Of a stretch of 10,165 nt of DNA, positions 1 to 9,888 are shown one piece after another. Under the pieces are notes generated by a model. That model was not told the origin of the DNA. It ran no database searches and worked only from the letters and a program-made list of their open reading frames with translations. The stretch spans positions 1 through 10,165 of the forward strand of contig DLVS01000712.1 of NCBI GenBank assembly GCA_003445095.1, written 5' to 3'. Origin of the DNA: Verrucomicrobiales bacterium. GTDB taxonomy: Bacteria; Verrucomicrobiota; Verrucomicrobiia; Limisphaerales; UBA9464. Within the stretch, counting starts at the first letter, position 1; the number at the start of each line of letters is the position of its first letter. Position numbers and translations under genes: made by a program.

Positions 1-509
1 GTCACAATGAAATCCCAGTCCGTCGCATTGAACTGCACGAGATCTTCTTGAGTTACCGTGGTGGTCTGGACGGCCGCTCGAAGCCCCGCGGCCTGAATCA
101 ATGACTTCATCACGGTGGAATCTGACTGGCGAGGGTGGCACGCACTGTGCCTTCCCTCGGTGAGAGACACGGATTTGTCGGAGCAATCGAGGATCAGTTC
201 GGTGTTACTGCTGCTCTTGGCTCGGGTTCGCAGGCGCGTGATGATCCCTTTAAAGATCGTCTTATCCTGGGAGTCATAGCCGGCGAGGATCTCGATGTCC
301 TTGCCCGGCTGAAGCAACGGTTGACCGCTGAGCGGGAAATCTTGTTCCGCGGCGTTGCCGTCTAGCAGGACGATCCGAGCTGAAGGAATCCGATTAACTT
401 CGCGGGCGACAGTAATGCTGACCACCTCGCAGGGAGGCATTGGCGTCCCACCGGCGCGAATGCGGCAGGTGACTATCGACGTGTTGAAATTGGACGACGG
501 CATGGTCAT
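1..509 (-). CDS. VgrG/Pvc8-like spike protein of a contractile injection system (N-terminal part, runs off left edge)
   Basis: Reading the minus strand from ATG at 509 gives 169 residues open to the window edge, starting MTMPSSNFNTSIVTCRIRAG. The N-terminal pattern (beta-rich, 'VSITVAREVNRIPSARIVLLDG', then 'PLSGQRLLQPGKDIEILAGYD', 'KTIFKGIITRLR', ending 'DLVQFNATDWDFIV') fits the gpD/VgrG fold of T6SS and eCIS spike hubs, where this segment forms the trimeric base under the needle. The start codon overlaps the stop of the preceding LysM gene by four bases (ATGA), so the two are probably translationally coupled. Position right after the Pvc7-like gene is the Afp8/Pvc8 position. The C-terminal needle and any PAAR or effector part are outside the window. 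Family call is from pattern recognition; the exact orthologue is inferred from gene order. Confidence 0.85.
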   Translation of the reverse strand, partial: MTMPSSNFNTSIVTCRIRAGGTPMPPCEVVSITVAREVNRIPSARIVLLDGNAAEQDFPLSGQPLLQPGKDIEILAGYDSQDKTIFKGIITRLRTRAKSSSNTELILDCSDKSVSLTEGRHSACHPRQSDSTVMKSLIQAAGLRAAVQTTTVTQEDLVQFNATDWDFIV

Positions 510-1195
510 CGCTTGATCGGAGGAAAAATCAACTGCACTCCGGGTTGGAGTCGCCGAAAACTGCTGAGTCGGTTCACTCGCGCCAGCTCGAGGTAGTGTG
601 CCGGGTCGCCGTAAATCTCCTGCGACAAAGCCGGCAAGGTGTCGCCCTGTTTGACGACTCGCACATGGGTCAGATCGGGCGAGGAGGTCCGCTCCTGCAG
701 CGCGCGCATCAGCGGCGAGATCGACCCTTTGAATTGAGCCGCCGCCCGCGCGCGCAACGGCAGTCCGGAAGGCGCGAACAACGTGTAGCTGATGTCGAGT
801 GAGGAAAGCCGCCCTTTGAAAACGAGCGTGCCCCAAACGATGCGCACGTAACGGGGCGCATGGGTGTCGCCCTTGAAGTTGAGAGCGACCCGCTTGAACG
901 CCTCGATTTGCAGGGTCACCGGCAACACCTTGGCCGCCGCGCTGCCGGCCGACGTCATCGGAACAACCCCGGTGCCGTCGAATAAAAAGGTGAAGCCGAT
1001 GACTCGGGGTTTCGTGCCTTTGTATTTCAAGTCCGCGCCGCTCGCGCCCCACGGCTGCGCGTCGGAGTAATCAATTTCGAATTGCTCGTTATAGCTATCG
1101 GGATTGATCAGCGTTTCATACACCTCCCCGGTGGGCCGGAGATAGCCGGAGTCCTTGAACGCGGCGATGACAAGCTTGATGAGCTTAGCGTTCAT
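506..1195 (-). CDS. LysM-domain CIS tube/baseplate adaptor protein (Afp7/Pvc7-like)
   Basis: This 229-residue protein has two parts. Residues about 1-165 resemble the contractile injection system tube-protein N-terminal domain ('LINPDSYNEQFEIDYSD' followed by 'GTKPRVIGFTFLFDGTGVVP'). Residues 179-229 are a LysM module ('VVKQGDTLPALSQEIYGDPAHY', 'NRLSSFRRLQPGVQLIFPP'). In Afp/PVC particles the equivalent protein sits in the baseplate between inner tube and spike hub and is related to T4 gp53-like LysM proteins. The ATG at 1195 is preceded by a GGGAG Shine-Dalgarno-like motif. The gene overlaps the DUF5908 gene by 11 bases upstream and the VgrG gene by 4 bases downstream. No signal peptide or membrane segment is visible, as expected for a particle assembled in the cytoplasm. 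Confidence 0.88.
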   Translation of the reverse strand: MNAKLIKLVIAAFKDSGYLRPTGEVYETLINPDSYNEQFEIDYSDAQPWGASGADLKYKGTKPRVIGFTFLFDGTGVVPMTSAGSAAAKVLPVTLQIEAFKRVALNFKGDTHAPRYVRIVWGTLVFKGRLSSLDISYTLFAPSGLPLRARAAAQFKGSISPLMRALQERTSSPDLTHVRVVKQGDTLPALSQEIYGDPAHYLELARVNRLSSFRRLQPGVQLIFPPIKR

Positions 1196-1367
1196 TGTGC
1201 TCCCAGAGCCGTTCCATGACCCGATTCACGCATTCTTCTACCAGCCTGTTATCCTCCGCCTTCGAGCGCGTTCCGCCGGCCTGGTCTCTAGTTTGGGTAG
1301 CTTCACCGCCGGGCTCGTGGTCGGCGACGATCGTACGAATGACGAGTTCTCGAATGACGATGGGCAT
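1185..1367 (-). CDS. DUF5908-like small CIS protein (Afp6/Pvc6 position)
   Basis: This 60-residue protein starts MPIVIRELVIRTIVADHE, the typical opening of the DUF5908 family ('MPIEIRELVIR'-like), and has a charged, probably helical C-terminus (EDNRLVEECVNRVMERLWEHNER). Family members are tiny proteins encoded between the second tube protein and the LysM protein in eCIS operons. Their molecular role is not settled; a chaperone or minor tube-baseplate role has been considered. The gene begins 6 bases after the Pvc5-like stop and overlaps the next gene by 11 bases, which supports it being a real operon member despite its size. Confidence 0.8.
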   Translation of the reverse strand: MPIVIRELVIRTIVADHEPGGEATQTRDQAGGTRSKAEDNRLVEECVNRVMERLWEHNER

Positions 1368-1373
1368 AGTGTC

Positions 1374-1820
1374 TCAGGTGTTGAGCCGACGGAAGTACTG
1401 GTATTGAAGTTGGAGCGTCTCGATCGCGACCGCGCTCTGTTGGGCGTCGAACTCCGACACCGACCAACGAACCGGAAACGCGTTCACGACTCGCCAGGAG
1501 GCGATGGGTTGGTGCGTCTCACCGAGCAAGCTGATCTGGACATTGATCGGCTTGAACACGAAGTGCTCGATCGCGTCGCGGCACCAACGTTCCAAGGCCG
1601 AGTCGAGAACCAAGCCTCGTCTGAGTTCCAGCAGGTCGCACGTCGTTCCGGTGGGAAGTTTGTGTTTGAAGCGGTTCTCGCCGCCTTCGCGAACTTCTTC
1701 GGTCTCTACGGTGGCGGACAGACCGGACACCGATTGGAACCTCGTGTCGCGCGAAGCGCCGTCGAGGTCCTGGAACGCCACCGCAAAGTGGAACCCCACC
1801 GGAGGATAATCGACTGGCAT
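1374..1820 (-). CDS. Phage tail tube protein, second paralogue (Afp5/Pvc5-like)
   Basis: This 148-residue protein belongs to the T4 gp19-like tail tube family. It opens with 'PPVGFHFAVAFQDLDGASRDTRFQSVSGLSATVETEEVREGGENRF', then 'LRRGLVLDSALERWC' and 'INVQISLLGETHQPIASWRVVNAFPVRW', ending in 'AIETLQLQYQYF', all characteristic blocks of CIS tube proteins. In Afp/PVC particles the Pvc5-type paralogue forms the first tube ring contacting the baseplate, and the Pvc1-type protein builds the rest of the tube. An AGGGG motif lies 2-7 bases before the ATG. Spacing is 11 bases to the upstream tube gene and 6 to the DUF5908 gene. Assignment to the Pvc5 class rests on its position before DUF5908 and LysM. 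Confidence 0.9.
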   Translation of the reverse strand: MPVDYPPVGFHFAVAFQDLDGASRDTRFQSVSGLSATVETEEVREGGENRFKHKLPTGTTCDLLELRRGLVLDSALERWCRDAIEHFVFKPINVQISLLGETHQPIASWRVVNAFPVRWSVSEFDAQQSAVAIETLQLQYQYFRRLNT

Positions 1821-1831
1821 GGCCCCTCCGC

Positions 1832-2266
1832 TTAGGCGTTTTGGATGGTGATGCCCTCGTTGACAATGGTCAGGCTCTCAATGGCGACTTCGCTGCCGGA
1901 GGCATTAAGACTCGGCCCTTCCAGACTGGACGGCCAGGCGTTCTTCACCTTCCACACCACGACGGGTTCGTGCTTCTCGTCCAGCAGACTGATGACGATG
2001 TCCCGCCGTTCCACTTTGTTGAGAGCCACGGTATTCCACCATTGATAAAACTCGTTGTCGCCCTTGAAGACGCCGCGTTTAAGCGTGATGTCACTGAACT
2101 TGCGCTGTCCCGGCATTTTGATTTTGGAGAACTCCGGGCTGAGTCCATCGCGGTATTCCACGACCTCGGTTTCGACCTTGAGTCCGGACGCTTCAGTGAA
2201 CGCCAGCTTGGCGCCACCCCAGGAAACCTGGAAGTGGAAACTGGGAACGGGATAATCAGCAGCCAT
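1832..2266 (-). CDS. Phage tail tube protein, main inner tube (Afp1/Pvc1-like)
   Basis: This 144-residue tail tube protein opens with 'YPVPSFHFQVSWGGAKLAFTEASGLKVETEVVEYRDG', continues 'KIKMPGQRKFSDITLKRGVFKGDNEFYQWWN' and 'RDIVISLLDEKHEPVVVWKVKNAWPSS', and ends 'SEVAIESLTIVNEGITIQ'. This is the conserved gp19-like layout used by eCIS hexameric inner tubes, which carry cargo inside the sheath. Compared with the second tube paralogue downstream it matches the family consensus more closely ('LKRGVF..D..F..W.NT'), so it is the likely major tube subunit. No clear Shine-Dalgarno precedes its ATG. It sits 54 bases after the sheath gene. Confidence 0.92.
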   Translation of the reverse strand: MAADYPVPSFHFQVSWGGAKLAFTEASGLKVETEVVEYRDGLSPEFSKIKMPGQRKFSDITLKRGVFKGDNEFYQWWNTVALNKVERRDIVISLLDEKHEPVVVWKVKNAWPSSLEGPSLNASGSEVAIESLTIVNEGITIQNA

Positions 2267-2320
2267 ATAAGATAGATGTTATGAGTTGAAGTTGTTCTTG
2301 GCGTGGGTCGGCGTCCTTCT

Positions 2321-3499
2321 CTAAGCGGTTTGCAGTTTGTGGGAGAAGCGAATAACCACGAATTCGGACGGGCGTACTGCGGCCATGCCGACATTGACGA
2401 TCATGCGGCCTTCGAGAACGTCCTGGGGCGTCATCGTCGTGCCCAGACCCACATTCACAAAGAAGGCTTGCTCCGGCTTCGCTCCCGCCAGTGCTCCCTG
2501 ACGCCACAAGCCGGTGAGGAAATTCTCAATCATGGCCTTAACCTTGATCCAAGTGTTGGCGTCGTTGGGTTCGAACACCACGAAAGCGGTGGAGCGACGA
2601 ATCGATTCTTCCGCCAGAATGAAGAGGCGGCGCACCGACACATAGCGCCACTCATTGTCATTCCCCTTGAGGGTGCGTGCCCCCCAAACGAGCACGCCTT
2701 TGCCGGGAAAGGCCCGGATGGCATTGATGGATTTGCCGTCAGTATCGACGTTCAGTGACTCCTGATCGTGATCGTTGATCGCCTCAGTCAACCCGACGAC
2801 TCCATTGAGGCTTACATTGGCGGGGGCCTTCCACACGCCGCGCTGCGCATCCACGCTGGCATAAACGCCCGCCACTGCGCCGCTCGCGGGGACTTCGGTC
2901 GGTTCATTGGACCCGGCCGGTGCCGCGACCTGTAACCACGGGCCATAGGCCGCGCCGTAATCCAGATTGCTCGTGCCGACTCCGGTGCGGAATGCCGCAA
3001 TCAGCTTCGACTCGCCTTTGCTCCCCAGCAGAGAATCGCGCGTGGGAGCATCCAGGATGCAAAAGCGACCGCGCAGGTCATAGCAGTGTTTGAGCGCAGT
3101 CTTTTGCACTTCTTCGAGGCCGGTCGATAGGTTCACCGCATCCGGGAACAGAATGAGCGTCGGCTCCGGAACTTTTTCCAACGCTGCTAGCGCGTCGGTG
3201 AACAACTTCGAGTTTAACGCCGTTGAGGCGCCTCCCACGGAATAGACGTAAGCATCGCCGCCTCCGTTGGCATAAAACAGTTTGATCGAACTATAAAGAT
3301 ACGCCTTGGCCCCGGCGCCCTGTCCGAAGGCGTTTTCATATTCCAGCAGCGAGCCGATTTTGGAGAAACCAGTAAGCTTTTCCGGTTTCTTGGCGGTCAC
3401 GCCGATGAACGCCGGAATCGCAGTGGGAACCTGAACGACCGACGCAGGCAGCGTGGCTGTTTCCTCGACGTAAACGCCGGGTGTTTTGTAGTCTATCAT
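2321..3499 (-). CDS. Contractile tail sheath protein (Afp2-4/Pvc2-4-like)
   Basis: This 392-residue protein starts MIDYKTPGVYVEE, the hallmark N-terminus of CIS and phage sheath proteins. This N-terminal arm, together with the C-terminus, links neighbouring subunits. The C-terminal sheath domain is at residues about 289-392 ('VRRLFILAEESIRRSTAFVVFEPND', 'WIKVKAMIENFLTGLWRQGALAGAKPEQAFFV', 'EGRMIVNVGMAAVRPSEFVVIRF'). Sheath polymers contract around the inner tube to drive it through a target membrane. Afp and PVC encode three sheath paralogues; only one is seen here, so the particle probably has a homopolymeric sheath, unless paralogues lie elsewhere. Its length is close to that of compact eCIS sheaths. 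Gaps of 55 bases upstream and 54 downstream. Confidence 0.95.
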   Translation of the reverse strand: MIDYKTPGVYVEETATLPASVVQVPTAIPAFIGVTAKKPEKLTGFSKIGSLLEYENAFGQGAGAKAYLYSSIKLFYANGGGDAYVYSVGGASTALNSKLFTDALAALEKVPEPTLILFPDAVNLSTGLEEVQKTALKHCYDLRGRFCILDAPTRDSLLGSKGESKLIAAFRTGVGTSNLDYGAAYGPWLQVAAPAGSNEPTEVPASGAVAGVYASVDAQRGVWKAPANVSLNGVVGLTEAINDHDQESLNVDTDGKSINAIRAFPGKGVLVWGARTLKGNDNEWRYVSVRRLFILAEESIRRSTAFVVFEPNDANTWIKVKAMIENFLTGLWRQGALAGAKPEQAFFVNVGLGTTMTPQDVLEGRMIVNVGMAAVRPSEFVVIRFSHKLQTA

Positions 3500-3554
3500 A
3501 GAGTGCGTGAGTTTCTGTGGAGGTTTTCGCGACGATAAATCAGGCGGTTTCGGG

Positions 3555-4166
3555 CTAGCGGGACCTAAAATTCAAACGGAAATCGTGCAGCGGCGCCGCA
3601 ATTCTCGACCGATAATCCGCCGGCAAGGAAAGCATCGAGATCTTGTAAAGAACGGAAGGCGCATACTTAGCGCCGAGATAGGCCCAGAGATTTTGCTGCT
3701 CCTGAATCGAGAGGTTGACCTGACGCACGATCAGTTTCTCGATGCCTTTGGGCAGATCCGGCGAGTCCTCGGGAGAGAACGACGGCCGCGAATGGAAGAA
3801 ATGCACCGCCCGCGTAAGACTTTGCAGCGTTCGTCCATAGTTCTTGGAAACGCCCTCAGGATCGGTCGGGCCGTTGGAGGGCCGGAATTCGGCCGACACC
3901 AATACGGAGAGGTTCAGATTCAACGCCGCCGGACCGATTTCGAACCCCGTTTCCGTCTCGCGCTGGGCGTAAGGCTTACGCGCGGCGATCTCTTCTTCCA
4001 CGTTCACCAAGGTTAAGCTGACTCCTTGCTCGCCACCGGGGGTGACCTCGCCTCTTTGATCCACCAGAGCACGCATCACCACGGGCAAATCCGTCGGCAA
4101 TTCCCGAAAAGTCCCGAAATGGGCGTTCAACTGCTCGCGCAGAAACGAAATTGCTTCAGCAATCAT
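3555..4166 (-). CDS. DUF4255-like tail terminator/cap protein (Afp16/Pvc16-like)
   Basis: This 203-residue protein opens MIAEAISFLREQLNAHF and continues 'VSLTLVNVEEEIAARKPYAQRE' and 'LNLNLSVLVSAEF', then 'NYGRTLQSLTRAVHFFHSRPSF' and 'LSIQEQQNLWAYLGAKYAPSVLYKISML'. This is the pattern of the Pvc16 N-terminal/DUF4255 family. The family forms the hexameric cap that terminates tube and sheath at the distal end and sets particle length together with the tape measure. It is the first gene of the operon here, whereas afp16/pvc16 is last in the classical Afp/PVC order. The ATG at 4166 has no strong Shine-Dalgarno. A 14-base palindrome lies about 110 bases upstream. Confidence 0.88.
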   Translation of the reverse strand: MIAEAISFLREQLNAHFGTFRELPTDLPVVMRALVDQRGEVTPGGEQGVSLTLVNVEEEIAARKPYAQRETETGFEIGPAALNLNLSVLVSAEFRPSNGPTDPEGVSKNYGRTLQSLTRAVHFFHSRPSFSPEDSPDLPKGIEKLIVRQVNLSIQEQQNLWAYLGAKYAPSVLYKISMLSLPADYRSRIAAPLHDFRLNFRSR

Positions 4167-5622: not shown

Positions 5623-7002
5623 ATGCAGGCGGCGCTCCTTTGCCCTCACTGCGGCGGTCGCCGGCCCACGACCGCGCTGGGCGGCCTTTGCCGACGTTGC
5701 GTAGGGCGCGGCTTGCTGCTCGCCGAAGATTACCTCACTAACCCAACGGACAAAGTCCTCGGCCAGACCATTGGCTGCTACCGGCTGCTGGAAAAGGTCG
5801 GTGAAGGTGGTTGCGGGGTCGTCTATCTCGCCGAACAGGACGAACCGTTCCGTCGCCGGGTCGCGGTGAAAATCATCAAGCCAGGGAAGGGGACCGAGCG
5901 GTTGGAAGCTCAGTTCGCGGCAGAGCGACGGGCGCTGGCGATGATGGATCATCCCCATATTGCCAAGATGTTCGACGCCGATTCCGACCCCCTTGGGCCA
6001 GGAACCTATCTCGCCATCGAGCTGGTGATCGGCCGCCGCATTACCGATTACTGCGACCGTGGTCAGCTCGGCGTCGCGGAACGAGTTGAGCTGTTCATCA
6101 AAGTTGGTCATGCGATTCAGCACGCGCACGACCAGGGCATCATTCATTGCGACCTCAAGCCTTCCAATATTCTAGTCACCCAACATGACGGTATCGCGAC
6201 GCCCAAAGTCATCGATTTCGGCATCGCCCAAGCCATGAGGGGCCGTTTAGAGGGAGCCGGTATTCCGCCACCGGTCCACGAATTCCAGGGCACTCCGGCT
6301 TACATGAGCCCCGAGCAAGCGGAAATGACCGGCCTGGACCTGGACGCGCGCAGCGACATCTACAGTCTGGGCGTTGTGCTCTACGAATTGCTGACGGGCG
6401 TCACCCCGTTTGAAGGCAAAGAACTCCTGGCCTCGGGCCTCGACGCAATGCGCAAGACGATTCGGGAGAAAAAGCCAGTCCGCCCAAGCACGCGGTTGAC
6501 CCAACTTCGAGCGGATGCGCGCGATTCCAAAATCGTCACTCGTCACTTATCACTGGCCGCTGGTCTAGACGGGGTCGTGATGAAATGTTTGGAAAAGGAT
6601 CGGACCAATCGCTACGACACCGTGGAACAACTTATGCACGCTCTCCAACGGTACCGTTGGCGGCCTCCAGAGCCACGGGGGTTGTGGCCGGACGGATCAC
6701 TCCGCCAACCAGTCAACCAGAAGTGCCTCATGAACTCGTCACCCACAGAACAAAGGCTCAAATACGTCGGCCTGGATGTCCACGCCGAAACGATCGCCGT
6801 CGCTATTGCCGATTCCAATGGCTCCGTCCGAGCCTACGGGACGGTGCCCGCCCACACCCAGGCGGTCGACCGACTCGTCAAGAAGTTGGCGGAAGACGGG
6901 AGCGAAACCCGCGACGTCTATGAAGCCGGTCCGACCGGGTTCTGGCTCTACCGACCCCTGCGTCAGAAGGGCGGGCGTGCGAAATCATCGCCCCGTCCTT
7001 GA
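5623..7002 (+). CDS. Zinc-ribbon Ser/Thr protein kinase, truncated and fused in frame to an IS110 transposase fragment
   Basis: The 459-residue ORF begins with a zinc ribbon (C7, C10, C23, C26) and a Hanks-type kinase domain at about residues 53-345. Visible motifs are the glycine loop VGEGGCGVVY (59-68), Lys83 in AVKIIK, Glu101 in the C-helix, the catalytic loop HCDLKPSN (175-182), DFG (198-200), the GTPAYMSPEQ activation-segment end (223-232) and DIYSLGVVLYELLTG. Asp177, Lys179 and Asn182 are present, so catalysis is plausible, but the usual Arg before the catalytic Asp is Cys176 (non-RD type). Relatives usually continue into a membrane helix plus TPR or WD40 repeats; here the sequence changes after about residue 348 and from Met370 is IS110 transposase. 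An AAGG motif lies shortly before the ATG. It forms an operon with the sigma gene. Whether the fused protein folds and signals is unknown. Confidence 0.85.
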   Translation: MQAALLCPHCGGRRPTTALGGLCRRCVGRGLLLAEDYLTNPTDKVLGQTIGCYRLLEKVGEGGCGVVYLAEQDEPFRRRVAVKIIKPGKGTERLEAQFAAERRALAMMDHPHIAKMFDADSDPLGPGTYLAIELVIGRRITDYCDRGQLGVAERVELFIKVGHAIQHAHDQGIIHCDLKPSNILVTQHDGIATPKVIDFGIAQAMRGRLEGAGIPPPVHEFQGTPAYMSPEQAEMTGLDLDARSDIYSLGVVLYELLTGVTPFEGKELLASGLDAMRKTIREKKPVRPSTRLTQLRADARDSKIVTRHLSLAAGLDGVVMKCLEKDRTNRYDTVEQLMHALQRYRWRPPEPRGLWPDGSLRQPVNQKCLMNSSPTEQRLKYVGLDVHAETIAVAIADSNGSVRAYGTVPAHTQAVDRLVKKLAEDGSETRDVYEAGPTGFWLYRPLRQKGGRAKSSPRP

Positions 7003-7012
7003 TTCCGCAGAA
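6730..7012 (+). mobile_element. IS110-family transposase 5' fragment, frameshifted and truncated
   Basis: From ATG 6730 the reading frame MNSSPTEQRLKYVGLDVHAETIAVAIAD is the DEDD N-terminus of IS110-family transposases. The first catalytic Asp is in GLDVH and the Glu is in YEAGPTGFWLYR. Near 6970-6978 the frame breaks: the current frame gives GGRAKSSPRP and stops at 7002, while another frame restores CEIIAPSLIPQKG, the normal IS110 continuation. One base has therefore been lost (or two gained). Similarity ends at about 7012, where the sequence passes into a direct repeat. Only about 95 of the usual 300-400 residues remain, so the element cannot move itself. Its insertion probably removed the 3' part of the kinase gene. 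Confidence 0.82.
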
Positions 7013-7062
7013 GGGGACTCGTTCATCTCCTGGGGGGACTCGTTGGGGACAGGACACATGTC
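7008..7062 (+). repeat. Direct repeat copy A, left flank of the cassette-like array
   Basis: CAGAAGGGGACTCGTT (7008-7023) and a 29-base block starting GGGGACTCGTTGGGGACAGG (7034-7062) are both found as one contiguous run in copy B at 8516-8549. Copy A carries an extra internal segment, so GGGGACTCGTT occurs twice within it (7013-7023 and 7034-7044). The repeat begins where IS110 similarity ends and stops 6 bases before the stop codon of the first cassette-like gene. It may be the end of a REP/RAYT-like or other mobile element; I cannot name the element. Confidence 0.85.
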
Positions 7063-7068
7063 ACCTTC

Positions 7069-7440
7069 TCATCGCAAATAAAACTCCATGAGCGCTATGT
7101 TCTTACCACCAACGGCCGCGAGTAAAATTGCAAAAGCCAGACCCGACGCGAACGCTGTGGAACGACCGAGCCGGAGCCAACGTGACGCGGGATCGTCACT
7201 GCCAAATAGAAACTCGAGTGCGTAAGCAAACGTGTAGCAAATGTTCGCACCGAGTGCCGAGAATAGGAATAGCAAGAGCACGTAGTAGGGATGCCAGCCA
7301 TAGTCGTCACCGGCACGCGAAAACCCTGCGGTGAGCATGTAGATGAGAGCTGACGGCGGTAGGAGCGCAACATTGTAGATGATGCGTCGTCGCTCCCAAT
7401 AACGGATAGCTGCGTGTCTGAACGCATGATAATCATGCAT
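7069..7440 (-). CDS. Small three-TM membrane protein of unknown function, cassette-borne
   Basis: This 123-residue protein starts MHDYHAFRHAAIRYWERRRIIYN, an amphipathic, Arg-rich N-terminus followed by three hydrophobic segments at about residues 20-39, 51-72 and 94-112. Short polar loops include GDDYGWHPYY and GSDDPASRW. By the positive-inside rule the N-terminus is probably cytoplasmic. I recognise the general type (small 'YHxFRxxAxRYWERRR' membrane proteins common in environmental gene cassettes) but no function. The ATG at 7440 lies 12 bases after the attC-like site at 7452-7556. The gene has no attC-like site after its stop; direct repeat A begins 6 bases downstream instead, so the array seems to have been cut here. 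Confidence 0.8.
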   Translation of the reverse strand: MHDYHAFRHAAIRYWERRRIIYNVALLPPSALIYMLTAGFSRAGDDYGWHPYYVLLLFLFSALGANICYTFAYALEFLFGSDDPASRWLRLGRSTAFASGLAFAILLAAVGGKNIALMEFYLR

Positions 7441-7451
7441 AAGATAGTGCC

Positions 7452-7556
7452 GCCGAACGATTCAGCTCTCCGCTACCGCGCCTCTCCTCGGGCTTGTTCA
7501 ACCACCGGTGTAGTTGCTGGCTCCGCTCCGCAGCAATACACCCTTTATTGTTCGGC
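7452..7556 (-). other. attC-like recombination site 3
   Basis: On the minus strand the 105-base site begins GCCGAACAATAAAGGG and ends CTGAATCGTTCGGC, with the 7-base ends exactly complementary (GCCGAAC/GTTCGGC). It lies between the stop of the Cys-rich gene and the start of the membrane-protein gene. Its interior differs from the other two sites and is less palindromic, as attC interiors usually vary. The AAC/GTT core positions match attC R-boxes; the fourth base of each box does not. Confidence 0.6.
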
Positions 7557-7574
7557 GTTGTTTTCATCTGCGGG

Positions 7575-7880
7575 CTAAGAGTGGCATGCGCTATCTGTGA
7601 GATAGTCGCAGTCGCACGACATAACTTGCTGAAAGCAGCGAGGGCACTGCTCACGCTCACACAATGGTTCGTGGAGCTGCGATCTCGCTGCATCACAACA
7701 CGGACAAAGGCCGCTGCCGTGAGTCACCATAGGATAGGTCTCGTCCCCAAATCTAATCCGCGATCGCAAGTCGTCTCCGCTCCGGTAGTGCGTGAGAGTC
7801 TGCGCTTCCGCGAGGGACTCGGCATAGTCGCGTCGCATCTCAACGCCGTTATAGATCACGATATCCTCGGGGCTCATCAT
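7575..7880 (-). CDS. Cys-rich, probably zinc-binding small protein, cassette-borne
   Basis: I place the start at 7880 (MMSPEDIVIYNGVEMRRDYAE; 7877 is an alternative Met), giving 101 residues. The longer open frame back to 8006 would translate the attC-like site itself. The C-terminal half has a dense Cys cluster: C59, C61, C62, then 'HEPLCEREQCPRCFQQVMSCDCD' with C74, C79, C82, C89 and C91, and H70. This resembles a recurrent motif of small bacterial proteins (H-x3-C-x-x-E-x-C-P-x-C-x6-C-x-C after 'RIRFGDETYP') and should bind one or two metal ions. Function is unknown. Position between attC-like sites 2 and 3, with its start 5 bases from site 2, marks it as a cassette gene. Confidence 0.75.
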   Translation of the reverse strand: MMSPEDIVIYNGVEMRRDYAESLAEAQTLTHYRSGDDLRSRIRFGDETYPMVTHGSGLCPCCDAARSQLHEPLCEREQCPRCFQQVMSCDCDYLTDSACHS

Positions 7881-7884
7881 TTTT

Positions 7885-7977
7885 GCCGAACGGGCCGGAT
7901 CACCGACCCGGCGTCCAAGGTGTGCTGCATGGAACCGAGGCGCTACCGCCGGGTTCTGTGTAGCCGGTTTGTTCGGC
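7885..7977 (-). other. attC-like recombination site 2
   Basis: On the minus strand this 93-base site begins GCCGAACAAACCGGCTAC and ends GATCCGGCCCGTTCGGC. The two ends fold back well beyond the 7-base boxes: after GCCGAAC both arms share CCGG and, further in, CCCGGCG, with small offsets giving extrahelical bases as in attC hairpins. It is clearly related to site 1 through shared internal blocks (GGCTACA, CTCGGTTCCA, GCACA, TTGG). It lies 7 bases after the stop of the 97-residue gene and 4 bases before the Cys-rich gene. Confidence 0.68.
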
Positions 7978-7984
7978 TCGTCCT

Positions 7985-8278
7985 TCAATGCAGCGCAACT
8001 TCCCACTCTTCAAACGGTGGCTCAACCTTAAAACCGGGATCGCAATAAGAACGCAAATAGTCGGCGGCACGCTTCTCTGCGTGGTTCAGATTGGTCACAT
8101 TCCCGGCCTCGTCAATTTCGAGAACGTTGGCAAAAATGGCATAAGTCTGCTCAATGGCGCTGGGCTCCTTTCCGAAAAGGTCCAGATACGACACGCCTTC
8201 GAGCATGTAGTGAGTTCCGCTCGCGAGAAAATATGAAAACGTCCTCAGCGCTCCGCTAACTTGGTGCGAAAGTCTCAT
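7985..8278 (-). CDS. Small conserved-looking protein of unknown function, cassette-borne
   Basis: This 97-residue protein begins MRLSHQVSGALRTFSYFLASG, continues 'LEGVSYLDLFGKEPSAIEQTYAIFANVLEIDEAGNVTNLNHAEKRAADYLRSYCDP' and ends 'PPFEEWEVALH'. It is soluble, with no signal peptide or membrane segment. The composition and the ordered blocks (SGALRTF, NVTNL, PPFEEWE) look like a genuine conserved family; I believe similar DUF-type proteins exist but will not name one. The start at 8278 is 6 bases from the GTTCGGC end of attC-like site 1 and there is no Shine-Dalgarno, typical of cassettes read from an outside promoter. The stop is followed by attC-like site 2. Confidence 0.75.
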   Translation of the reverse strand: MRLSHQVSGALRTFSYFLASGTHYMLEGVSYLDLFGKEPSAIEQTYAIFANVLEIDEAGNVTNLNHAEKRAADYLRSYCDPGFKVEPPFEEWEVALH

Positions 8279-8284
8279 TCATTG

Positions 8285-8378
8285 GCCGAACGCCGCTGCT
8301 CAGTGACGCGCCGCCAACTGTGCCCGACCTGGAACCGAGCCGCAACCGGCGCGTTCGCTGTAGCCTTTTTAAGCCGTT
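8285..8378 (-). other. attC-like recombination site 1 (one end degenerate)
   Basis: On the minus strand the site ends GCAGCGGCGTTCGGC and begins with AACGGCTTAAAAAGGCTACA, where the expected GCCGAAC box is degraded to GGCTTAA. Internally it aligns with site 2 (GGCTACA, GAAC, CTCGGTTCCA, GCACA, TTGG in the same order and spacing). ACGCGCCG-type arms occur on both sides. The left box may have decayed, or may have come from a different recombination partner. Confidence 0.6.
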
Positions 8379-8479
8379 GGTTCATGTATTGTGCAACTCC
8401 AATCTTCCGCAATCGCGGACTTGGCTGCGATGCTACGAAACGCTTTGCGAAAGATAAGCCGACTCTGAAGATCTCTCAT
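8369..8479 (-). pseudogene. 3' remnant of a cassette gene
   Basis: A 36-residue frame (MRDLQSRLIFRKAFRSIAAKSAIAEDWSCTIHEPTA) ends inside the outer box of attC-like site 1, exactly where a cassette gene should stop. It is cut upstream by the hairpin and direct repeat B. Nothing recognisable remains. It is most simply the tail of a longer gene whose 5' part was lost when the repeat arrived, but it may also be noncoding. Confidence 0.3.
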
Positions 8480-8484
8480 GAACG

Positions 8485-8505
8485 CACCGCCGGGAGCGGG
8501 CGGTG
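8485..8505. repeat. GC-rich hairpin next to direct repeat B
   Basis: CACCGCC (8485-8491) and GGCGGTG (8499-8505) are perfect 7-base inverted arms around GGGAGCG. The hairpin ends 10 bases before direct repeat B. A terminal hairpin beside a short conserved repeat is what REP-type (RAYT-mobilised) elements or IS ends look like, but I see no equivalent hairpin at copy A. There is no T-tract, so it is not an obvious terminator. Confidence 0.4.
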
Positions 8506-8515
8506 GCAGCGAATC

Positions 8516-8549
8516 CAGAAGGGGACTCGTTGGGGACAGGACACATGTC
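8516..8549 (+). repeat. Direct repeat copy B, right flank of the cassette-like array
   Basis: A contiguous 34-base run starting CAGAAGGGGACTCGTTGGGG, same orientation as copy A about 1.5 kb to the left. It includes the complete 29-base block found at 7034-7062. Both copies contain the near-palindrome GACACATGTC. The two copies bracket the whole cassette-like array, so recombination between them could excise it, or they mark the ends of the segment that brought it in. Confidence 0.85.
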
Positions 8550-8601
8550 GCTTTGCAACCTGCTTCGCACGGCGAATTCGATAACCCGATCACCTTCCGC
8601 G

Positions 8602-9376
8602 ATGTCGACTTCCGCCGACGCGCGCGAACTCGAATCGTTGCTGTCCGCCGAGCCTCAAGCGGTCGCCGCCCACACGCAGTTACTCGCTCTGGAAGGCGCG
8701 CCTGCGTGCGGAACTCGCGACGTCGGTGGAACGGCGCGTGATGCACCAAATCGAAGCCGAGCCTCCACCAGCTTGGGCGACTCTCAGGCCCAACGTAGGT
8801 TGCCGGAAGTATCCCCCCCGGCCATTCGTCTCCTTCCCGCGGCTACGCGCTATTTGGAACCTGCCCAGGAACCGCCCTAGTCGCGGAGGGAACGACGCGC
8901 ACTCTTCTTTACGCGACGACGCGCCAGAATCCACCGACGCCTCCATACCCGCTGCGTTGGTCAGCGCCTCCTTCCGTCGACGGCTACGAGGGTTCATGGT
9001 CCCAACTCGCATCCAATTTTGGAGGTTTTCCCTCCCTACGATGCTCGCGTTCGCCGCCTCCTTGACGATTTTCCTCGGCCTTTGGCTATTCGGCCCGACC
9101 ATGGGCCAGCCGACGCTGGTCGAGGCGAAGGGTCCGGACGTCTCCGTCGGGCGCGGGAAGGAGTCGATGCCTGCCGTGCCGGGATTCGCCATAAGACCTG
9201 GTGACGTCGTGCGACTGGGCACCAACGCCTCGGGAACGATTGGCTTCGGTCCGGAGCGAACGCGGTTGGAATTGAGCGCTGGCACCCAGTTGCAACTCAC
9301 GTCTCTCGCGCAGGGTAAACGATTCGTTCTAACGGCGGGCAAGATCGAGGCCTCGGTGGAGGGACCAATGACCTGA
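8602..9376 (+). pseudogene. FecR-domain membrane protein (anti-sigma-like), frameshifted and 3'-truncated
   Basis: ATG 8602 opens MSTSADARELESLLSAEPQAVAAHTQLLALE. At 8695 one extra G breaks the frame; skipping it gives LLALEARLRAELATSVERRVMHQIEAEP, the usual continuation of Verrucomicrobial/Planctomycetal FecR-type proteins. The second frame then runs open to 9376. It has a membrane helix at about 9026-9094 (FSLPTMLAFAASLTIFLGLW) and an external FecR domain ('PGFAIRPGDVVRLGTNASGTIGFG', 'LELSAGTQLQLTS', 'KRFVLTAGKIEASV'). It ends abruptly after GPMT, where family members continue for about 100 residues ('TTP..A.V.GTRF'). FecR-type proteins usually relay envelope signals to an ECF sigma factor encoded just upstream; none is there now, so the 5' neighbour was probably lost as well. 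A product from a later start (ATG 8996) is conceivable but would still lack most of the domain. Confidence 0.65.
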
Positions 9377-9442: not shown

Positions 9443-9628
9443 ATGAGCACAGTTGCCGAATTGGAAGAGGCTGTTCCCAAGCTGAGCCGGGGCGAGCTGG
9501 AAGCCTTCCAGCGGTGGTTTGAGGAGTATCTGGAGGATCAACGGGAGTTGCGGGACGAGGTGGTCGCGGCCCTCGATCAATCCAGGGAAGAGATTGCTGC
9601 CGGACATTACCGGACCCGCCAGCCCTGA
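9443..9628 (+). CDS. Type II antitoxin (RelB/ParD-like)
   Basis: This 61-residue acidic protein (MSTVAELEEAVPKLSRGELEAFQRWFEEYLEDQ... ending AALDQSREEIAAGHYRTRQP) matches the short 'LSxxELxxFxxWFxEY' antitoxin type found before RelE/ParE toxins. The N-terminal half is helical and the C-terminal tail would wrap the toxin. Its stop is followed after two bases by the toxin ATG, the usual TA coupling. A classical DNA-binding ribbon-helix-helix is not obvious, so how it autoregulates is uncertain. Confidence 0.82.
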   Translation: MSTVAELEEAVPKLSRGELEAFQRWFEEYLEDQRELRDEVVAALDQSREEIAAGHYRTRQP

Positions 9629-9630
9629 AC

Positions 9631-9888
9631 ATGGCTGCGGCCCTGCAAATCTGGTCGCCCACCTGCTGCCGCGCCTTTGATGGGCCGCCTCAAGCCGTCC
9701 AGGCCGAAATTACGCGTCGGGTGGACGCGATGGGAACCGTGCTGGATCGTTTTCCTCATCAGCGGCTGAAGGGTCGCCCGGAATGCAAGTTGCGGGTTGG
9801 GGATTACCGCGTGTTGTACGAGTTTGACATCCCGTCCGGTCGCATCTGGCTGCATTTGGTCGGGCATCGCCGGGACATCTACAAATAG
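9631..9888 (+). CDS. Type II toxin of the RelE/ParE superfamily
   Basis: This 85-residue protein has the RelE/ParE C-terminal core: 'FPHQRLKGRPECKLRVGDYRVLYEFD' followed by 'IWLHLVGHRRDIYK'. The block 'L.G....RL.VGDYRVLYE.D......V..VGHR.D.Y' is a hallmark of RelE-type mRNA interferases. The basic residues (Arg, Lys) and the terminal HRRDIYK contribute to RNA binding and cleavage in characterised members. ParE-type gyrase poisons share the fold, but the closing HRRDIYK pattern favours RelE. Length is normal and the gene looks intact, unlike its neighbours on both sides. Confidence 0.87.
   Translation: MAAALQIWSPTCCRAFDGPPQAVQAEITRRVDAMGTVLDRFPHQRLKGRPECKLRVGDYRVLYEFDIPSGRIWLHLVGHRRDIYK

What the first reader, a model, noticed from the sequence alone, without database searches (positions are those of the whole stretch)
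7063..8479. Integrase-less gene-cassette array with GCCGAAC/GTTCGGC attC-like sites in a Verrucomicrobiota-like genome
Three sites of 93-105 bases share ends (GCCGAAC...GTTCGGC, one end degenerate) and separate short, same-strand genes of unknown function, each starting 6-12 bases after a site. Sites 1 and 2 are homologous along their length; site 2 folds into a long imperfect hairpin with extrahelical offsets. This is the architecture of integron cassettes, but the boxes break the RYYYAAC/GTTRRRY rule at the fourth base. It may be a lineage-specific attC class, or a different recombination system using the same logic.
Basis: partly seen in the sequence, partly recalled or inferred. Interest (0 to 1): 0.85.

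Follow-up and report, generated by a model that had tools for sequence, protein, structure and literature searches.

The report
Integron cassette array without visible integrase
This is a short row of swappable genes from an integron, a known bacterial gene-collecting system, in a bacterium that is probably a Verrucomicrobiota; its recombination sites follow the pattern ordinary for that group, so it is a real but not unusual feature.

Summary
On the minus strand the window holds four integron-type cassettes (8482 down to 7069) with three sites between them. Site 2 (7885-7977) is an attC: a covariance model built from 61 attC of other genomes gives it 18.0 bits (E 0.0026) with exact ends on the gene strand; 170,626 control bases scored the same way reach at most 13.2 bits. 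With the search's default speed filters the model reports nothing in the window. Sites 2 and 3 share one hairpin with three compensatory double changes. Site 3's end is not degenerate: its box CATGAAC matches GTTCATG at 8477-8483, the start of a further small cassette. The supposed rule break is ordinary: 36 of 99 attC in Verrucomicrobiota arrays have G at position 4. Relatives of genes 2 and 3 sit beside attC elsewhere, one of them 9 kb from an IntI gene. Site 1 does not fold as one site. No IntI was found in the window; the rest of the contig is not held. Verdict: a CALIN-type array, new member of a known kind.

The parts
8477..8483 (-). Core box GTTCATG at the start of cassette 4; exact complement of the box CATGAAC at 8380-8386
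8369..8479 (-). Cassette 4 small ORF (36 codons), starts inside the core box and ends inside site 3
   Evidence: read from the sequence and the ORF list; not shown to be a gene
8285..8386 (-). Site 3, attC-type: R'' CATGAAC 8380-8386, R' GTTCGGC 8285-8291; hairpin shared with site 2
   Evidence: model score only 4.1 bits
7985..8278 (-). Gene 3, 97 aa, PF24725 (DUF7677); relatives lie in cassette arrays of two other Verrucomicrobiota genomes
7885..7977 (-). Site 2, attC: R'' GCCGAAC, R' GTTCGGC
   Evidence: not reported with default filters
7575..7880 (-). Gene 2, 101 aa, cysteine-rich (CPCC, CPxC, CDCD), 93 relatives, no named family found; two of three distant relatives in phylum genomes lie beside attC model hits
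7452..7556 (-). Site 1: R'' GCCGAAC 7550-7556, R' GTTCGGC 7452-7458, inner box GTTGAAC 7496-7502; perhaps a composite or decayed attC
7069..7440 (-). Gene 1, 123 aa, 228 relatives, no named family; its own attC is missing on the far side
7034..7067 (+). Left copy of a 34-base direct repeat, next to the end of gene 1
8521..8554 (+). Right copy of the direct repeat (94% identical), 37 bases outside the first core box

Best explanation
A short integron cassette array of the CALIN kind (a cluster of attC sites lacking an integron integrase, as far as the window shows). Four cassettes were laid down on the minus strand by IntI-type recombination at the G|TT of each core box, so each cassette begins and ends with complementary boxes. 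The folded single strand of each attC is the substrate. Shown here: box anatomy, exact pairing of cassette ends (3 of 3 cassettes with both ends visible, two of them with the same box), a covarying hairpin in sites 2 and 3, a match of site 2 to an attC model built without it, and relatives of genes 2 and 3 beside attC elsewhere. Inferred: that an IntI made it, which IntI, and whether any site still recombines.
For: Model R1, built without the window, gives 7885-7977(-) 18.0 bits, E 0.0026; with the same full scoring, 10 control loci (170,626 bases) reach at most 13.2 bits; with default filters 56 control loci (932,245 bases) give one hit, 16.3 bits. Site 2's box-and-stem score is reached in 1 of 300 dinucleotide shuffles of the window. 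Sites 2 and 3: 16 pairs, 3 changed on both sides and kept, p 0.0004 under random change. Cassette ends: GTTCATG/CATGAAC once and GTTCGGC/GCCGAAC twice; the same rule holds in 64 of 80 cassettes elsewhere against 12.6 when boxes are shuffled. A gene 3 relative (55%) lies in array L139 with model hits on both sides and IntI on the same contig; another (71%) in an array of G068. Gene 2 relatives in G017 and G124 lie beside model hits on the gene's strand (28.2 and 22.5 bits).
Against: With default filters the model reports no site in the window; with full scoring only site 2 stands out. The site 1 piece has 11.5 bits (E 0.14), a score that 6 places in the 170,626 control bases also reach; site 3 has 4.1 bits. 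One search's own column shuffle, weak with two sequences, is reached by 59 of 500. Neither site 1 nor site 3 folds better than shuffles. Cassette 1 lacks its attC. No IntI was found in the window, attI was not sought, and IntegronFinder was not run. None of the six gene 1 relatives in phylum genomes lies near a model hit.
Confidence: 0.88

Rival explanations
1. A lineage-specific attC class, or another recombination system using the same logic, with its own box rule GCCGAAC/GTTCGGC.
For: Sites 2 and 3 are only moderately like the pooled model: 18.0 and 4.1 bits, against 17 to 61 bits for the sites listed in other arrays, many of which trained it.
Against: GCCGAAC and other boxes with G at the fourth base are common in arrays beside ordinary IntI genes (36 of 99 sites), mixed with C and T boxes in the same arrays; this array itself also uses CATGAAC.
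Confidence: 0.05
2. An inert remnant: a piece of an integron array carried here by rearrangement, truncated, whose sites no longer recombine.
For: The array is cut off on the left next to a direct repeat, cassette 1 lacks its attC, a truncated IS110 gene lies beside it, site 1 is irregular.
Against: Site 2 looks intact and three cassettes keep exact end pairing; genes 1-3 have the length of their relatives. This rival concerns activity, not identity.
Confidence: 0.45
3. Dispersed hairpin repeats that happen to lie between genes, with no recombination.
For: Sites 2 and 3 are alike along their length.
Against: Complementary boxes define gene-sized units, including the separate pair GTTCATG/CATGAAC; model hits are associated with IntI genes.
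Confidence: 0.04

Closest known systems
CALIN elements (clusters of attC lacking an integron integrase)
   Same: attC-bounded short same-strand genes of unknown function, no integrase seen; passages of PMC8618304 define CALIN and list three ways they may form
   Different: IntI could be sought in the window only; one of three sites stands out by model score
Chromosomal integrons of Verrucomicrobiota
   Same: Box sequences, cassette-end pairing, place of the unpaired bases, and a relative of gene 3 as a cassette; PMC8618304 (passages) lists Verrucomicrobiota among phyla with integrons
   Different: No IntI in the window; sites 2 and 3 (93 and 102 bases) are longer than the 57-92 bases of the sites used for the model
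attC sites as described in PMC3053210 (passages)
   Same: Palindrome between core boxes, 57-141 bp, two unpaired bases on one side of the folded strand
   Different: In sites 2 and 3 the unpaired bases are five apart by my pairing, against six in the T-N6-G sites of that paper; fourth box base G

Membership tests
attC site | Inverse core box ending AAC and core box beginning GTT at the two ends | tested here: met
   All three sites
attC site | Full RYYYAAC/GTTRRRY consensus | tested here: not met
   Fourth base G; but so have 36 of 99 sites of other Verrucomicrobiota arrays, so it acts as a loose consensus there, not a requirement
attC site | Imperfect hairpin with unpaired bases on one side, kept by covariation | tested here: met
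   Sites 2 and 3, with the caveat of the weak column shuffle; not for site 1
attC site | Match to an attC covariance model | tested here: inconclusive
   Site 2 yes with full scoring (E 0.0026), no with default filters; sites 1 and 3 within control range; the model is my own, not IntegronFinder's
Integron gene cassette | One short gene per site, and complementary boxes at the two cassette ends | tested here: met
   3 of 3 cassettes with both ends visible; the fourth is cut off
Complete integron | IntI gene beside the array | tested here: not met
   No IntI found in the six frames of the window; the rest of the contig and genome are not held
Complete integron | attI site and cassette promoter | not tested
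   attI was not sought; a plain promoter scan of 6700-8800 found one site, about as many as shuffles
CALIN | At least two attC close together and no integrase nearby | tested here: inconclusive
   Two attC by anatomy and covariation, one by model score; integrase not found in the window, unknown beyond it
Integron system | IntI-catalysed recombination of the folded strand | not testable with these tools
   needs a bench assay

The most novel reading that the evidence does not exclude
The integrase-less array is itself a unit that moves as a block: it lies between two 34-base direct repeats, which may be the trace of recombination or of transposon ends, so cassette arrays could spread to new places without their own integrase.
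Probability: 0.08. Interest if true: 0.45.

Novelty: new member of a known kind. Interest (0 to 1): 0.2.

Why it matters
It is one more sample of the uncharted cassette pool, with two protein families (genes 1 and 2) that match no named family in the libraries tried and one domain of unknown function. The useful by-product is a correction: in the arrays sampled here the fourth base of the attC box is G in about a third of sites, so searches that insist on RYYYAAC would miss them.

Tried and rejected
Exact self-complementary box pairs as an attC finder in IntI loci: found little, because a site's two boxes belong to different cassettes. Rfam on the window: no match. Gene 3 and gene 1 in viral contigs: nothing for gene 3, one weak fragment for gene 1. 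Gene 3 in plasmids: four distant Streptomyces records. The array region against plasmids: none. The flanking repeat: none in viral contigs (21 bases, exact), in 96 phylum genomes (18 bases, exact) or in phages. Gene 1 in 387 phylum genomes: six distant relatives, no model hit near them; gene 2 in 337: three distant relatives, two beside model hits. Anti-phage and phage family libraries for genes 1-3 and solved structures for gene 3: nothing. Considered and rejected: AACCAAC as the first box of site 3, since CATGAAC matches the cassette start. Rejected as evidence on its own: the control, because it used default filters, under which site 2 itself is not reported; searches are the like-for-like control.

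Full report
What is there. On the minus strand, reading from 8483 down to 7069, the window has: core box GTTCATG (8483-8477), a 36-codon ORF, site 3 (8386-8285), gene 3 (8278-7985), site 2 (7977-7885), gene 2 (7880-7575), site 1 (7556-7452), gene 1 (7440-7069). Copies of a 34-base direct repeat lie at 7034-7067 and 8521-8554, next to gene 1 on the left and 37 bases outside the first box on the right. GC content is 0.54-0.58 over the array and 0.57-0.65 around it.

Chance. Two GCCGAAC...GTTCGGC pairs 50-145 bases apart occur in the window; 500 block shuffles gave a mean of 0.006 and never more than 1. With a simple box-and-stem score, site 2 scored 21.8, reached in 1 of 300 dinucleotide-preserving shuffles of the window. 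Site 1's inner piece scored 16.2, which shuffles reach about twice per window, so that score says nothing for site 1.

Comparison set. The best sheath-protein relatives of the window are Verrucomicrobiota MAGs (56% and 54%), so I took the phylum of the first one. IntI (TIGR02249) is over its cut-off in 107 of 387 genomes (113 at E 1e-50). I fetched 20 IntI regions; 7 showed clear attC clusters under my scan, 13 did not, several of them cut short by the contig end. With two further loci brought in by gene 3 relatives (L138, L139), and bounds chosen by eye, the scan gave 99 sites in 9 loci of 8 genomes. The scan is mine, requires AAC and GTT, slightly favours RYYY boxes, and will include some false sites. 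L138 (G068, 4 of the 99 sites) has no IntI over the cut-off; the other eight loci hold one.

The box rule. Fourth base of the first box in the 99 sites: C 52, G 36, T 10, A 1; GCCGAAC occurs 7 times, tied second. In 64 of 80 cassettes the two ends are exact complements; shuffling boxes within arrays gives 12.6 on average, at most 24 in 5000 shuffles. By contrast the two boxes of one site are complements in 13 of 99. This is what crossing over at G|TT predicts (established integron knowledge), and it explains site 3: its first box CATGAAC pairs not with its own GTTCGGC but with GTTCATG at 8477-8483. Three GTT heptamers lie in the 134 bases upstream and two AAC heptamers near the site, so a chance match is about 2% (my estimate, 6/256).

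Independent model. From the 99 sites 72 of suitable length were listed (one array thinned) and 61 aligned (the 11 others were left out by hand, among them both L139 sites). The alignment shows a covarying stem: all 9 pairs predicted by RNAalifold have changes on both sides. Model R1 uses a 17-pair structure that I wrote from it. With full scoring it gives site 2 18.0 bits on the minus strand, the strand of the genes, with exact ends, and 3.4 bits on the plus strand. Next is 7452-7502(-), 11.5 bits. Site 3 gets 4.1 bits over 8285-8386, the same CATGAAC end. With default filters nothing in the window is reported, so the earlier control with default filters (56 loci, 932,245 bases, one hit at 16.3 bits) is not like for like. 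Full scoring of 10 control loci, 170,626 bases, gives at most 13.2 bits, and 6 places at 11.5 bits or more, all in the loci. So site 2 stands out and site 1 does not.

attC and IntI. In 387 genomes R1 hits 116 at E 0.001; 73 of these carry IntI (E 1e-50), against 40 of the 271 without hits (p about 1e-20); among 32 genomes with five or more hits 26 carry IntI and six do not. At most 12 candidates per genome were scored, so hit counts are lower bounds, and seven of the genomes supplied the model. Six L139 sites, none used for the model, are found; both L138 hits were in the model.

Hairpin. Sites 2 and 3 align without gaps over 81 columns, 57 identical; their inner parts score 7.5 standard deviations over shuffles, against 1.2 for sites 1 and 2. 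A hairpin of 16 pairs with unpaired A at columns 5 and 11 holds in 15 of 16 pairs in each; three pairs change on both sides and stay paired (sliding the partner by 1-3 columns gives none). Random changes of the same number give this in 0.04% of trials, though the tool's column shuffle, which has little power with two sequences, reaches it in 59 of 500. The unpaired bases lie at 17 and 23 of site 2; in a typical array site I read them at 16 and 23.

Site 1. The 105-base stretch does not fold as one site. Its inner 61 bases (7496-7556) form a clean 12-pair hairpin with one unpaired base (14 and 20 of 200 shuffles fold as well), with the extra base on the side expected for the opposite orientation; the model gives that 5.3 bits and gives 11.5 bits to the other part. 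I read it as two attC pieces sharing the box at 7496-7502, perhaps after loss of a cassette; this is inference.

Genes. Gene 3 is DUF7677 (E 5.6e-42) with 272 relatives. In 387 phylum genomes it has two: G068 (71%) and G191 (55%), both in rows of short genes with attC-like sites. In G191 the gene is at C53:56272-56538 and an IntI at C53:65571-66509 (319.6 bits), with model hits on both sides of the gene. Gene 2 (93 relatives) has three distant ones in 337 phylum genomes: in G017 (31%, one stop inside) a model hit of 28.2 bits ends 10 bases before it, and in G124 (39%) hits of 22.5 and 13.3 bits lie on either side, on the gene's strand; the third has no hit beside it. Gene 1 (228 relatives) has six distant ones in 387, none near a model hit. 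Genes 1 and 2 match no family in the libraries tried. Gene 2 is conserved around CPCC, CPxC and CDCD, so a metal-binding protein is likely (inference).

Integrase. A profile from 27 IntI frames of the fetched loci finds none in the six frames of the window (best E 0.34), while it finds the L139 IntI at about 1e-110. Pfam on 20 of the 61 listed frames shows no recombinase but the truncated IS110 start. The genome is not held; the genes are listed on a contig of 36,510 bases, so an IntI outside the window is possible.

Literature. Passages of PMC8618304 list Verrucomicrobiota among phyla with integrons and define CALIN; passages of PMC3053210 give attC size, boxes and the role of extrahelical bases; passages of PMC8352920 name 11 taxon-specific attC models, Verrucomicrobiota not among them; passages of PMC7370490 give the general motifs. 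In the listings of searches I saw no paper on the box statistics of this phylum.

Verdict. A real integron cassette array of CALIN type as far as can be seen, with ordinary boxes for its phylum. Known kind, low surprise.

Noticed in passing
window 7034-7067 and 8521-8554: Two 34-base direct repeats lie on either side of the array; the motif was not found in 96 phylum genomes, viral contigs or phages. What it is remains unexplained.
   Followed up: partly
window 5623-7002: A protein kinase frame runs into the first 70 or so residues of an IS110 transposase: the IS is cut off shortly before the left repeat.
   Followed up: no
window 506-4166, minus strand: Contractile injection system genes: tube protein with LysM, tail tube (gp19), sheath, Pvc16.
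   Followed up: no
window 9443-9888: Possible toxin-antitoxin pair: a small gene followed by a ParE-like gene just over Pfam's cut-off.
   Followed up: no
genomes G037, G061, G147, G194, G276, G369: Six phylum genomes have five or more attC model hits but no IntI at E 1e-50: CALIN-rich genomes or incomplete assemblies.
   Followed up: no
L124:4371-16502: Array with many nearly identical attC, some with only about 150 bases between them.
   Followed up: no
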